NCBI RefSeq assembly: GCF_000516515.1
Contig: NZ_KI911784.1
Span: 62,001 to 126,000 of the forward strand
Reading direction: 5' to 3'
DNA from: Chloroflexus sp. Y-396-1
GTDB lineage: Bacteria; Chloroflexota; Chloroflexia; Chloroflexales; Chloroflexaceae
DNA: 64,000 bases
Part shown: positions 1 through 40,114 of the stretch, piece after piece
Numbering within the stretch: the stretch's first letter is position 1
Layout of the letters: every line of letters begins with the position of its first letter
Made by a program: the position numbers and the translations under genes
The notes under the pieces: model-generated
What the model saw: only the letters and a program-made list of their open reading frames with translations
The model's database searches: none
What the model was told of the DNA's origin: nothing

Positions 1-660
1 ACCCTGATGCGAGGCGTCACTAACACGCTGCGATTACAGATTGCGCACGTGGTGCAGCCAGGAAGTGCTGAGCTTGCCCTGTATGTCCAGCCGCCAGGGG
101 GGCAGGAAACTCTGGTAATCAGCCGCGAAGTTGCTCTACAACCGGCTCAACGATATGTGCTCGATGTTCCTTATAATCCGCCGGTGAATGGTTCGTACAT
201 CTTCCGCGCCGTCATCAATAGCGTCAATCCACCGGACACTAATACTGACAATAACCAGCGAACCTGGACGGCGGTGACGATACAACCACCCACTATCGGC
301 ATCAGTCTAGCCGAATCAACCACCATGACCGCATCAGTTGGCTTCTCCTTCACTCTTCCGGTCACCATTACCAATACCGGTGATCGGCCATTGCTCGTAA
401 CCAACATTGCATTTGGTGGTGCTGATGCTGCCCGCTTTGCCATCAGTCAGGATCGTTGCTGGGGAACAGCAATTGCAACGGGCGCATCTTGTACCATTGA
501 CGTCCGTTTTCGGCCACTCACGACTGGCCCGGTAAGTACGGTGCTTCAAATAACCAGCACCGACCCTCTGCATCCGTCGAGCGAACGAACCATCCACGGA
601 ATCGGCATCGAACCGAGACGTATCTATCTCCCCCTTATTCAACGGCGCTTGGAATGGTAA
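1..660 (+). CDS. C-terminal part of a secreted surface protein (CARDB-like and ASPM/Hydin-like Ig domains)
   Basis: The reading frame is open to the left edge, so only the last 219 or so codons are here and the true start lies upstream. Two Ig-like beta-sandwich modules can be recognised. Residues about 1-90 resemble a CARDB-type module, with an alternating hydrophobic pattern and a D-T-N-x-D-N-N turn. Residues about 95-200 resemble the ASPM/SPD-2/Hydin or 'choice-of-anchor D' type, with P-V-T-I-T-N-T-G-D followed by a C-T-I-D-V-R-F-R-P strand. The protein ends in RRIYLPLIQRR, a short basic-aromatic tail seen again at the end of the downstream beta-helix gene. Only 28 bases separate its stop from the next start, so the two were probably co-transcribed. 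Extracellular location and a structural or adhesive role are inferred; no enzymatic motif is visible. Confidence 0.75.
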   Translation, partial: TLMRGVTNTLRLQIAHVVQPGSAELALYVQPPGGQETLVISREVALQPAQRYVLDVPYNPPVNGSYIFRAVINSVNPPDTNTDNNQRTWTAVTIQPPTIGISLAESTTMTASVGFSFTLPVTITNTGDRPLLVTNIAFGGADAARFAISQDRCWGTAIATGASCTIDVRFRPLTTGPVSTVLQITSTDPLHPSSERTIHGIGIEPRRIYLPLIQRRLEW

Positions 661-688
661 CATCACGTTTCATTTACGGAGGTGATGT

Positions 689-3600
689 ATGCGTTCCCGT
701 ATCAACTTCTGGTCAATCATTGGCGGAATTATGCTGCTAGGCGGGCTGTTGCTGGCCGGTACAGTGGCACGTTCAGCAACCGTCCCAATGACAGTACCAC
801 CCCAACCACAGGAAATCGTGCCTGCGTGCAGCCCAATTACCACGGATACCACCTGGACAACGGGGAATGTGTATGTAGTGCAGAACTGTGCTCTGATAGT
901 ACAAGCCGGCGCCACATTGACGATCCAGCCGGGCGTGGTGGTGAAGTTTTTAAACTATTCAACCGGGCTGGGTGGAGCTGCTGGTCTGCGGGTAGACGGA
1001 CGCCTAATCGCCCAGGGTACAGCCGATCAACCGGTTGTCTTCACTAGTCTGGCTGATGACAGTGTAGGTGGTGACACCAACGGCGACGGAAATAGCAACG
1101 GCACAAAGGGCGATTGGTACGGGATGGTTTTGACCAACGGCAGTGAGACGATCCTCGACCACGTGAGTGTACGGTATACTAGCATGAGCGGGCTTCACAA
1201 CTTTGCACTTGGTTGGAATCAGGCCCAGATTGAGGTACGGCAGGGAGCGCGGTTTACCCTGACCAATAGCGAAGTACGTGATGGTGGTTTGTTAGCAGTC
1301 TATCTGAATGGTCGGGGTTTGACCCCCACTATTCGCAATGTCATAATTATGACTATACCGTTCATCAATCAACACCAAACATGCAGCCTACCTACGCCGA
1401 TCTGACGTTTAGTAACAATACGCGCAACGTGGTATCAATTGGCGGAACATACACCACTCTCACGCAGGATGTTACCCTGGGCGGGACAAATTTTGAAATC
1501 GCGCCGTGCGGCTATACAGCTTGTACTCTCACTATTCCAAGTGGACGAACATTGACCATTATGCCCGGTACAACGCTCACATTCAATGGTGCACCTGAGA
1601 AAATTATTGTGGCCGAGGGTGGGCGATTGATCGCCGAAGGAACGGCAACGCAGCCGATCACTATAACTGCAGCTACGGCGAACGCCTTTATGGGTATAGA
1701 GGCAAAAGGAGGAAGTACGTTGCGGCTGCGTCACTGCGATATAAGCAAAGCTAAAGAGTACGCTACTGCCTTAACAATAGCTACCGATGATGCCCAAGTG
1801 GCAAACTGTAACATTCATCATAACCTGGATAGAGGAATAAATATTTTGGCATGTGACGGATCGAGTTCTTGCGCAGGCAGGACAATCACGTTTACCGATG
1901 TCAATGTTTACAGTAACGGTGGCGAAATCACTCAACATAATCAAGACGGCATAGGCGTCTATTTAGTTGGTCGGCCGAACGGTACTCTCAGGTTGCCATG
2001 GGAAGGAGGGTTGGTCAAGGATAACGACGCTTCCGGCATAATCGAGTCTGGTCACATTGAAATGCGCTTGCGCAATGTGACTATTGAGGGAAATGGAAGA
2101 AACAATACCCTCTATACATCTGGTATTGGTATGCTCTCGCAGATGAGTAGTGGTAATTCTAACTTTACCCTAGAGAACGTCACGCTACGCAACAACGTCG
2201 GACCAGCCGTTGATTGGAACTGCAACAGCTCAATCACGGCACGTGGTTTGACCGCCAGTGGGAACGGCATTGATGCATTGGTGATGGGGTGATGGGTTGT
2301 GGCATCACGAGCGGACGACAATGGGATTTAGGTGATATTGGCATTCCAGTACAAGTTCGTGGTGTCACGATTCAGCCAAATGGTCTGCTCACGATCCGAC
2401 CAGGTACGGTGCTCTGGTTTGATGCAAGTAGATCTCTTTTCGTAGACAGAGAAGCATCGCTGATCGCCGTAGGTACCCCCGAACGACCGATCGTATTCAC
2501 GGCAACCGATCCAACTGCGTACTGGGAGGGCATCAGAGCAATCCTCAGCGCCACCGTTACTATGAACCATTGTGAGATTGGATATGCAGGTAGGGAGAAC
2601 CGATATTCCAGCGTATCTCTTCTCGGGGGATGGGAAGGAGGAGATGAACTACCAACGGTGAACATCCAGAACTGTGAAATTCACCACTCGTTCGGTTCGG
2701 GTGTCGAGTTTAGTTTTAATAACTATCCGGTAACAACGCCTCCGGTACTGCGATACAATCGGTTCCACGATAACGCACAAGAGGCAGTCAAAGCAATTGG
2801 TACCCCACCAATCGATGCACGATACAACTACTGGGGACACACAAGCGGGCCGTCACACCAACGCCAGAATCCGTCCGGTCAAGGTGATCGGGTGGGCGAT
2901 AATGTGCTCTTCTACCCATGGCTCCGTGAACCGGTAACCGGTGAAGTGGCCGGAGAAATGCTGATACGTACCGGCGGGCCAACGCTGATCAGTCCAGGGG
3001 AGACCGTGGATTATGCCGTTCAGTATCTGAATATGATGGATCAAACGATCAGTGGGAGTATTCTGGTGCTGCAATTACCGCACGCGGCGACATTTCTGGA
3101 GGGCACCGGTGGGGCGATCTATTGGCCGGAGCGCCATCAAGTCTTTTGGAAACTGGGCGATCTGGCGCCAAACGCCGAAGGATTCTTGACGGCGCGTGTG
3201 CGGTTTGATTGGGGCTTACCCGCTGATTATACCGATGGCACCTACACGATCTTTGCCGCACACAATTATCGGTCAGACCTCTTGAATCTGTCTGAATATG
3301 AGAGCTATCAACCGACCAGAACGCAACCACCGCAAATCACCCGCCTCAGTGAAACAGAATTGGCAACGTTACGCGCCGGTAATACAACCCTGAATCAGAT
3401 GTATCAACAGGCATTGGCCGATGGCTTCCAGTATGTTGACGCAGCACGCTTCACCGAGCAAGACGGACGGGTGATGACCCATGTCGTGCTACGCCTCCCC
3501 AACCGACGCTTCGCCCGTGTCTTGAGCGTGAGCCAGGACGGCCAGGTGACCGAGATGACTATCGGCAGCGGTCAGTTTATCGTGCGCGACACTAGCGGCG

Positions 3601-5223
3601 GCATGCAGGTAAATCTGACGGCCGGTGAATACACCTTCTCCGGCGGTTGGCTGGCCGGTCTGACACAAGCAGCCCCCCAGGCAGGAGATTGCTCGGCTGA
3701 GCGCTGTTTTGCGAATTGCATGTTCAACAAGCACACGCTTCTGGAAGTGGCGAAAAAAGCCGGCTCGGTGGTGACGACGTGGTGGATCCCCGGCGTCGGC
3801 TGGGTCTGGACGGCATATGAGGTCTACGATACCGTATCCGATTTGCGCCGGTGCCGCACTGAATGTGCAACTGCTGAAGGCCGCGCCGATCATTGCTGTA
3901 CACCGGGTCAAGTACTTTGGCGGCAGGGCACGTTGTCCGGTCAATGCGCCCAGTATCGTTGTGACGCAGCAGGGAATGCGTGGAAGGCAGCGCCCGATTT
4001 GATCGAGAAATGCTCATTCGGGCAGCGGTGCATTCCCGGTCTGGGCGCGCAAGGTGGGTGCAAAGATTGTCGTGATCTCTTGTCCAGTATTCGAGTTCTT
4101 ACGGTGGCGCGACGACCTGAAGCGGGTGTTTGTACTGCCGCTGATGATCGTTGTACGGGTCTCCGTGTTCGTCAGGCAAAAGACCCGAACGACATTACTG
4201 GCCCGACCGGCGACCTGTTACCTGGTCAGGTAGTGACCTACACCATTCGCTACGAAAACGAAGGGGAAGGGCGGGCTTACGGCGTGTATGTTGTCAATCC
4301 TTGCCGGATGTCTTTGAGAGAGCACGCTCACCTTTGTACATGGAACCGGTCAGTACGATGCAGCGAGTCGTGAAATAATCGGGTACGTCGGTGAGCTAGG
4401 GCCAAAAGGGGCCAGCGATTCGCAGGGAGTGATCACCTACACCGTAGCCTTGCGTAGTGGGCTAGCATCGGGCACAGTGGTGAGCAATCAGGCAGTAGTC
4501 TACTTCCCCAGTGTGCCGGAAGAGACCCCAACGAATACCTGGGTTAATCTGGTGACACCACTTGTGGCCGAACCGCAAACGCTGACGACAGCTTACCAGA
4601 CTCCGCTGACGATCACATTGCATGGACGTGACGTCAGTAATCTCCCCCTGACCTATGAAATTATCGAACAGCCGCACGGTGGAACCCTGAGCGGCACGCC
4701 GCCGAACCTGACCTATCATCCATTTGCCAACTTTAGCGGCGCCGATGGGTTTACCTTCCGCGTTAGTAACGGCACCTCTACCAGTTGTTCGGCTACCGTT
4801 GCAATCATCGTATCGTCACAGGGCGATACGACGACGCCAGAGGTGTTGTGGAGCGATCCAGAGCATGGCACCCAAGGGATACAGGTGTCAACTACTGCTA
4901 TCTTCAGTGATACCGAAAGTGCATTGTATGCGCCGGTCATTCGGTTCGGTGTCTCTGAAGCACTCAATGACACAACCGTTACGTCCACAACGGTGATTTT
5001 GCGGCGGAGTGGCGGTACAACTATTCCGGCACGGGTTACCTTCGATCCGGCACTCCAGCAAATTGTGCTCATGCCCCGGACGGTACTGACCACGGGCGCC
5101 TACAGCGTAACGGTGACGACAGGCGTGAAGGACAAAGCGGGGAATGTTTTGACAGCGCCATACACTATTCAATTTATGGTTGGCACCGAGCGTCGGATTT
5201 ATCTGCCGGTTATACAGCGTTAG
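689..5223 (+). pseudogene. Large beta-helix / DUF11 / Ig-like surface protein gene, broken by at least four frame lesions
   Basis: Read through its frame changes this is one protein of about 1500 residues. It starts at ATG 689 behind a strong GGAGGTGAT site and a signal peptide. It then has right-handed beta-helix repeats ('GATLTIQPGVVVKF', repeated as 'GRTLTIMPGTTLTF' and 'NGLLTIRPGTVLWF'), a DUF11-like module, a Cys-rich stretch (about 3690-4080), a second DUF11-like module, a cadherin-like module, an SbsA-type Ig module and the tail ERRIYLPVIQR. The frame changes near 1340 (about -1), at 2281-2296 (+8, exact tandem duplication), near 4297 (about -1) and at 4316-4321 (+2, GA repeat). The segments join into continuous homologous-looking sequence with no material missing, so these look like recent small indels. 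Sequencing errors are possible, but the 8-bp duplication is hard to explain that way. The longest intact piece, 2289-4373, lacks a signal peptide. Confidence 0.85.
2281..2296 (+). repeat. 8-bp tandem duplication GTGATGGG x2 that shifts the frame
   Basis: The bases read GTGATGGG GTGATGGG TTGTGG. Removing one copy restores an uninterrupted reading (A-L-V-M-G-C-G-I-T). With both copies present the frame stops at TGA 2290-2292. This is direct evidence for slippage or duplication rather than random divergence. Confidence 0.9.
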
Positions 5224-39544: not shown

Positions 39545-39955
39545 TTACCATTCTCCACTCTTGATCAAGCGTAACTCACCGCGTCGAATCGCTAATTCAA
39601 CCGCAGCACCAGCCACATACACCCAGGCGGGTCGCGTACCACCAACCGTCTGTACCGGTAATTCCACCCGTTCGTACAAATTGTTAGCACGACCGGGAAC
39701 GTAATCCTCCAACTCATCGAGTAGTTCCAGCACGTGCTGATAGCTTGCCGGATGAATCTCAATCAGCTCACCGAAGACGGTTGCGTTTGGCGGGAGGAGA
39801 TCGGCGGCCCGCACGAGAAACGGGTACGGCCCGGCAGTGTAGAGAGCAGCGTCCGGCAACCAGGCGCGTGTTTCGCTCACGGTGCGCCCTGCCAACAGGC
39901 GGGCATAATTCATTTGTCCTCGTTTCAATGTTCCGTAGACAAAAAATGGACGCAT
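39545..39955 (-). CDS. Gamma-glutamylcyclotransferase-like (AIG2/GGCT fold) protein
   Basis: 136 residues from ATG 39955. The signature 'FFVYGTLKRGQMNYARLL' near the N-terminus and 'GELIEIHPASYQHVLELLDELEDY' with the catalytic-type Glu match the GGCT-like family; the C-terminal 'AWVYVAG' strand closes the barrel. Members act on gamma-glutamyl amines or gamma-glutamyl amino acids, which would fit beside polyamine genes. No Shine-Dalgarno is visible upstream (AAAAATAATTG), and -10-like bases stand about 18 bases before the ATG, so the leader would be very short. Confidence 0.8.
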   Translation of the reverse strand: MRPFFVYGTLKRGQMNYARLLAGRTVSETRAWLPDAALYTAGPYPFLVRAADLLPPNATVFGELIEIHPASYQHVLELLDELEDYVPGRANNLYERVELPVQTVGGTRPAWVYVAGAAVELAIRRGELRLIKSGEW

Positions 39956-40114
39956 CAATTATTTTTCGCGGTATACTATCAACACGCCGCAACGCGGCTC
40001 ATACATACTATAGCAGGTTTCACCGGATCGGTGAGAAGCACAGGCAGCCGCTACAAGGTGACTGCCCAAACCGCACTGAACTGCAAGGGCGGAAACATTC
40101 TCAGGAGAAGCGCG

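What the first reader, a model, noticed from the sequence alone, without database searches (positions are those of the whole stretch)
689..5223. A ~1500-residue beta-helix surface gene broken by four small indels, one an exact 8-bp duplication
The four reading frames join end to end with no homologous sequence lost. The GTGATGGG x2 tract at 2281 restores the frame if one copy is removed, and the GA repeat at 4316-4321 does so if two bases are removed. This is either recent decay or a gene that can revert by slippage (phase variation of a surface protein).
Basis: seen in the sequence. Interest (0 to 1): 0.6.

Follow-up and report, generated by a model that had tools for sequence, protein, structure and literature searches.

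The report
Recently broken Chloroflexus surface-protein gene (pseudogene)
A gene for a large secreted beta-helix protein, intact in five related species, has been knocked out in this Chloroflexus genome by a few small insertions and deletions; this is ordinary recent gene decay and shows no sign of a reversible on/off switch.

Summary
Window 689-5223 (+) is one ~1,510-codon gene lying in successive reading frames. A frameshift-aware alignment to an intact Chloroflexus homologue (G007, 1,533-aa open frame) pairs 1,477 residues at 55% identity, with no in-frame stop. Breaks fall at ~1343-1349, 2281-2296, ~4299-4302 and ~4316-4319. Two corrections: the first break is a net loss of ~25-31 bp, so "no sequence lost" is wrong; and the two breaks near 4300 are best read as two 1-bp losses (four orthologues have 75 nt where the window has 73), so the GA tract is not a 2-bp gain. 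The 8-bp duplication is real and is the only exact 8-bp tandem in the 64 kb. Every homologue recovered has one uninterrupted frame. About 200 kb of other coding DNA from the same assembly shows no comparable break, which argues against general assembly error. Third-position excess and the absence of nonsense codons indicate long purifying selection and recent inactivation. Four separate breaks, a two-copy repeat and no conserved frameshift site argue against phase variation and programmed frameshifting. Verdict: a young pseudogene of a dispensable surface protein, ordinary. Raw reads and conspecific genomes were not available.

The parts
678..691 (+). Shine-Dalgarno-like GGAGGTGAT followed by the ATG at 689: start signal apparently intact
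   Evidence: read directly in the sequence
689..1342 (+). piece 1: signal-peptide-like N-terminus and first part of the protein; the homologous frame ends at about 1342, the ORF itself runs on to 1405
   Evidence: (63% identity to G007 over 1-218)
1340..1353 (.). break 1: net loss of ~25-31 bp against four orthologues; junction inside the perfect palindrome GTCATAATTATGAC
1351..2289 (+). piece 2: right-handed beta-helix (PF13229, E 3.5e-7)
2281..2296 (.). break 2: exact tandem duplication GTGATGGG x2, the only exact 8-bp tandem in the window
2289..4298 (+). piece 3: second beta-helix stretch, DUF11-like domain, Cys-rich region, first part of a DUF7619/DUF11 domain
4299..4319 (.). breaks 3 and 4: two 1-bp losses ~17 nt apart against four orthologues; they split the DUF7619/DUF11 domain
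4318..5223 (+). piece 4: end of DUF7619/DUF11, Big_9, Big_5 and the C-terminal tail RRIYLPVIQR

Best explanation
The locus is a recently inactivated gene (pseudogene) for a secreted ~1,510-residue cell-surface protein made of right-handed beta-helix, DUF11 and bacterial Ig-like domains. Shown: all relatives carry it as one open frame; here it is interrupted by four small lesions (a ~28-bp deletion, an 8-bp tandem duplication and two 1-bp losses close together). Inferred: translation from the intact start yields only a short secreted N-terminal stub, and the other three pieces lack signal peptides and clear ribosome-binding sites, so no functional protein is made. Inferred: the gene was dispensable in this lineage, one lesion killed it and the others accumulated afterwards. 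The lesions are of kinds that replication slippage and hairpin-associated deletion ordinarily produce.
For: Intact homologues of 1,392-1,545 aa in G007, G011, G012, G009 and G008 (same genus), more in G022 and G040, and an uninterrupted homologue in L003. Frameshift-aware alignment places the same breaks against independent orthologues. Codon-position differences of the window against G007 (0.35, 0.27, 0.64) match those between intact orthologues (for example 0.33, 0.25, 0.60), so most of its history was under purifying selection. There are no in-frame stops in 1,508 codons; with 3.05% of substitutions expected to be nonsense, fewer than ~97 neutral substitutions (2.1% divergence) have passed since loss, at 95%. 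The gene is absent from two other genus members, G006 and G010, which have only a 43-residue motif match, so loss is tolerated. 183 G007 genes aligned to ~200 kb of the same assembly gave no other convincing internal frameshift in G000.
Against: No reads and no second genome of the same species were available, so an assembly error, above all for the two 1-bp losses, cannot be formally excluded. The branch of the window's copy (0.67) is not clearly longer than the path to G011 (0.57) or L003 (0.60), though it is longer than that to G007 (0.34); this shows no strong relaxation, as expected only if the loss is very recent.
Confidence: 0.83

Rival explanations
1. Assembly or consensus errors: the gene is intact in the organism and the breaks are artefacts.
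For: All homologues are intact, no nonsense codons, and two 1-bp losses lie within ~17 nt, which can happen in a poorly resolved stretch. A published survey expects single, unclustered frameshifts with good homology support to be mostly sequencing errors (PMC3711429).
Against: An exact 8-bp duplication and a ~28-bp deletion are not typical consensus errors. ~200 kb of other coding DNA of the same one-contig assembly shows no comparable break, so four in one 4.5-kb gene is far above the background.
Confidence: 0.12
2. Phase variation: the gene is switched off and on by slippage at the 8-bp duplication and the GA tract.
For: The 8-bp tandem is exact and unique in the window and the protein is surface-type. 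Loss of one copy of a duplication is possible in principle.
Against: Four separate breaks must change together. Two copies are far from a slippage-prone tract. Length conservation among orthologues makes the GA-tract break a 1-bp loss, not a gain of a GA unit. No orthologue has a frame change there.
Confidence: 0.03
3. Programmed frameshifting or four separately translated proteins.
For: The frames overlap at the first two joins.
Against: No homologue has a frame change. The breaks split a single DUF7619/DUF11 domain. Pieces 2-4 have no signal peptide or clear Shine-Dalgarno sequence (read).
Confidence: 0.02

Closest known systems
Intact orthologue in G007 (5,258,541 bp; size as remembered for C. 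aurantiacus J-10-fl, identity not tested), C1:98.4-103.0 kb
   Same: Same domain order from signal peptide to the R-x-[IV]-Y-[LV]-P C-terminal tail, 55% identity over 1,477 residues; both lie near homologous mannosyltransferase-like and glycosyltransferase genes
   Different: One open frame; gene order is B-gene-A, against A-B-X-gene in the window's genome, where X is a 1,449-aa protein without a full-length relative in the genus
Bacterial singleton frameshift pseudogenes (class in the GeneTack survey, PMC3711429)
   Same: Frame breaks limited to one genome, intact homologues elsewhere, no conserved frameshift site
   Different: Four breaks in one gene, not one
Slipped-strand phase-variable surface genes
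   Same: Surface protein with a repeat at one break
   Different: Only two repeat copies, four breaks, no frame change in relatives

Membership tests
Bacterial pseudogene | Homologous to an intact functional-type gene in relatives | tested here: met
   Single open frames of 1,392-1,545 aa in five genus members
Bacterial pseudogene | Disabling lesions private to this genome | tested here: met
   No breaks in any other homologue examined; other strains of the same species not available
Bacterial pseudogene | Lesions present in the organism and not in the assembly alone | tested here: inconclusive
   No other convincing internal frameshift in ~200 kb of the same assembly; reads not available
Slipped-strand phase-variable gene | Multi-copy short repeat at the frame switch | tested here: not met
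   Two copies of 8 bp; no array found
Slipped-strand phase-variable gene | One repeat change is enough to restore the frame | tested here: not met
   Four separate breaks
Slipped-strand phase-variable gene | Different frame states among isolates or reads | not testable with these tools
   No reads or conspecific genomes
Programmed frameshift gene | Frame change conserved among homologues | tested here: not met
   All homologues have one frame
Right-handed beta-helix surface protein | Pfam Beta_helix above cut-off | tested here: met
   PF13229: 30.4 bits against 25.9 in piece 2; 69.1 bits in the G007 homologue
Right-handed beta-helix surface protein | Located at the cell surface | not testable with these tools
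   Inferred from the signal-peptide-like N-terminus and Ig-like/DUF11 domains

The most novel reading that the evidence does not exclude
The 8-bp duplication is a reversible lesion that segregates in hot-spring mat populations, so that the surface protein is polymorphic (present or absent) among co-occurring filaments.
Probability: 0.03. Interest if true: 0.45.

Novelty: new member of a known kind. Interest (0 to 1): 0.13.

Why it matters
Little beyond annotation: these ORFs should be annotated as one pseudogene and not as four proteins, and the family (a large beta-helix/DUF11/Ig surface protein) is variably present in Chloroflexus. The cluster of different lesion types in a gene that was until recently constrained is a small, clean example of early gene decay.

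Tried and rejected
Tandem-repeat arrays as phase-variation tracts: none found. A paralogue in the same genome that might replace the gene: only partial matches, about 32-44% identity, at C1:2.044-2.047 Mb, an 883-aa frame. A general frameshift problem in the assembly: the apparent breaks in other genes that were inspected were upstream non-coding sequence, an out-of-frame ORF extension and C-terminal drift. The 258098 candidate (G000 C1 ~300.1 kb) looks out of frame on the G007 side, not in the window's genome. The PDB has no sequence relative of the G007 homologue at E 0.01. A paper search for a Chloroflexi C-terminal sorting motif gave nothing relevant. No structure prediction was run, as the Pfam matches settle the fold class and it would not decide between explanations.

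Full report
What is there. The window lies at 62,001-126,000 of a one-contig 4.89-Mb genome. Between 689 and 5223 four ORFs follow each other on the + strand in different frames. A good Shine-Dalgarno sequence (GGAGGTGAT) precedes the ATG at 689 and the first piece begins with a signal-peptide-like sequence (read directly). Pfam finds a right-handed beta-helix in piece 2 (E 3.5e-7), a DUF11 match in piece 3 (2.3e-5), and Big_9 (2.6e-12) and Big_5 (1.4e-10) in piece 4.

Homologues. A family-wide search of 41 genomes found single open frames of 1,533, 1,508, 1,545, 1,531 and 1,392 aa in five genus members (G007, G011, G012, G009, G008) and further homologues in G022 and G040; a MAG contig (L003) also carries it without interruption. 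Two genus members, G006 and G010, show only a short motif match, so the gene is not universal.

The breaks. A frameshift-aware protein-to-DNA alignment, run against five homologues separately, puts the breaks at ~1343-1349, 2281-2288, ~4293-4302 and ~4316-4319. Against G009 the last two were merged into one net shift, and against the most distant, G008, which aligned only from 1486 on and so does not cover break 1, the last break was placed at 4352. Break 1: the window has 83 nt where four orthologues have 111, 111, 114 and 108, so about 25-31 bp are gone. The junction lies in the perfect 14-bp palindrome GTCATAATTATGAC (1340-1353), one of seven in the 64 kb; a deletion between short inverted repeats would leave this, but that is inference. 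Break 2: GTGATGGG twice, the only exact 8-bp tandem in the window. Breaks 3 and 4: all four orthologues have 75 nt where the window has 73, so two single-base losses fit better than one loss plus a gain of GA. These two breaks cut a DUF7619/DUF11 domain that is whole in G007 (residues 1181-1300; E 3.9e-14) and in the window is matched in part at the end of piece 3 and the start of piece 4.

Real or artefact. To test assembly quality, G007 ORFs were aligned to 484 kb of the window's genome in the same way. 183 genes (207 kb aligned, about 202 kb distinct) were compared. With at least 50 and 30 aligned residues on either side, the clear frame breaks were those of this gene. Three other frameshift candidates were inspected and were upstream sequence, an ORF out of frame on the G007 side, and C-terminal drift. 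One further frameshift candidate (110819, at the far N-terminal side of its ORF) and the stop-only cases were not inspected one by one; they look like upstream sequence and antisense or drifting ORFs. Four breaks in one gene therefore stand out from the rest of the assembly. Reads were not available, so this is strong but not final.

Age. Differences by codon position between the window and G007 are 0.35, 0.27, 0.64, like those between intact orthologues: most of the divergence was under purifying selection. No in-frame stop occurs in 1,508 codons. With 3.05% of possible substitutions giving a stop (transition:transversion 2), fewer than about 97 neutral substitutions, 2.1% divergence, have passed since inactivation at 95%. 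In the tree the window's copy groups with G007, G011 and L003 (99/100) with a branch of 0.67, not clearly longer than the paths to G011 and L003 (0.57, 0.60).

Mechanism. Best reading: a recently dead gene. One lesion stopped the protein; the others followed in a gene no longer selected. Which came first cannot be told. Phase variation would need all four breaks to be undone together, and the only repeat has two copies. In the classes of the GeneTack survey (PMC3711429) phase variation is marked by tandem repeats and clustered occurrence, and programmed frameshifts by a conserved site; here no homologue shows a frame change at all. That survey also warns that singletons are often sequencing errors, which is why the assembly test matters.

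Surroundings. In G007 the gene lies between a glycosyltransferase gene and a mannosyltransferase-like gene; in the window's genome both lie upstream in another order, with a 1,449-aa uninterrupted surface-type protein (HEMGH metalloprotease-like motif, same C-terminal tail RRIYLPLIQR) between them and the broken gene. That neighbour has no full-length relative in the genus. Whether it replaced the broken gene is speculation.

The organism's name was not established. Genome sizes suggest G007 is C. aurantiacus and G006 C. aggregans, and the window's genome could be Chloroflexus sp. Y-396-1 (named in PMC10927633), but this is from memory and was not tested.

Noticed in passing
L075:16311-20000 continuing to window 660 (G000:C1:58311-62660): 1,449-aa uninterrupted secreted-type protein with an HEMGHALGLY metalloprotease-like motif and a C-terminal tail (RRIYLPLIQR) almost the same as that of the broken gene; no full-length homologue in seven other genus members.
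   Followed up: partly
window 621-657 and 5191-5220; also G000:C1 ~322.8-328.0 kb: Short C-terminal tail of the form [IV]-[YF]-[LI]-P-[LVI]-[IV]-x-R, shared by the broken gene, its homologues and its neighbour; 3 of 494 stop-to-stop frames of 150 aa or more in 484 kb end this way. It may be a Chloroflexota sorting or anchoring signal.
   Followed up: partly
window 1340-1353: Perfect 14-bp palindrome GTCATAATTATGAC exactly at the deletion junction (one of 7 in 64 kb), as a deletion between short inverted repeats would leave.
   Followed up: partly
G007:C1 452586-453605 (L139): The N-terminal part of a transporter-like ORF aligns out of frame with the window's genome (G000 C1 ~300.1 kb), which suggests a frame break or sequence error on the G007 side.
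   Followed up: no
window 39565-40027: About 400 bp around and upstream of the ORF start at 39734 stay similar to G007 in translated alignment although probably not coding in this frame; possibly a conserved leader or an antisense gene.
   Followed up: no
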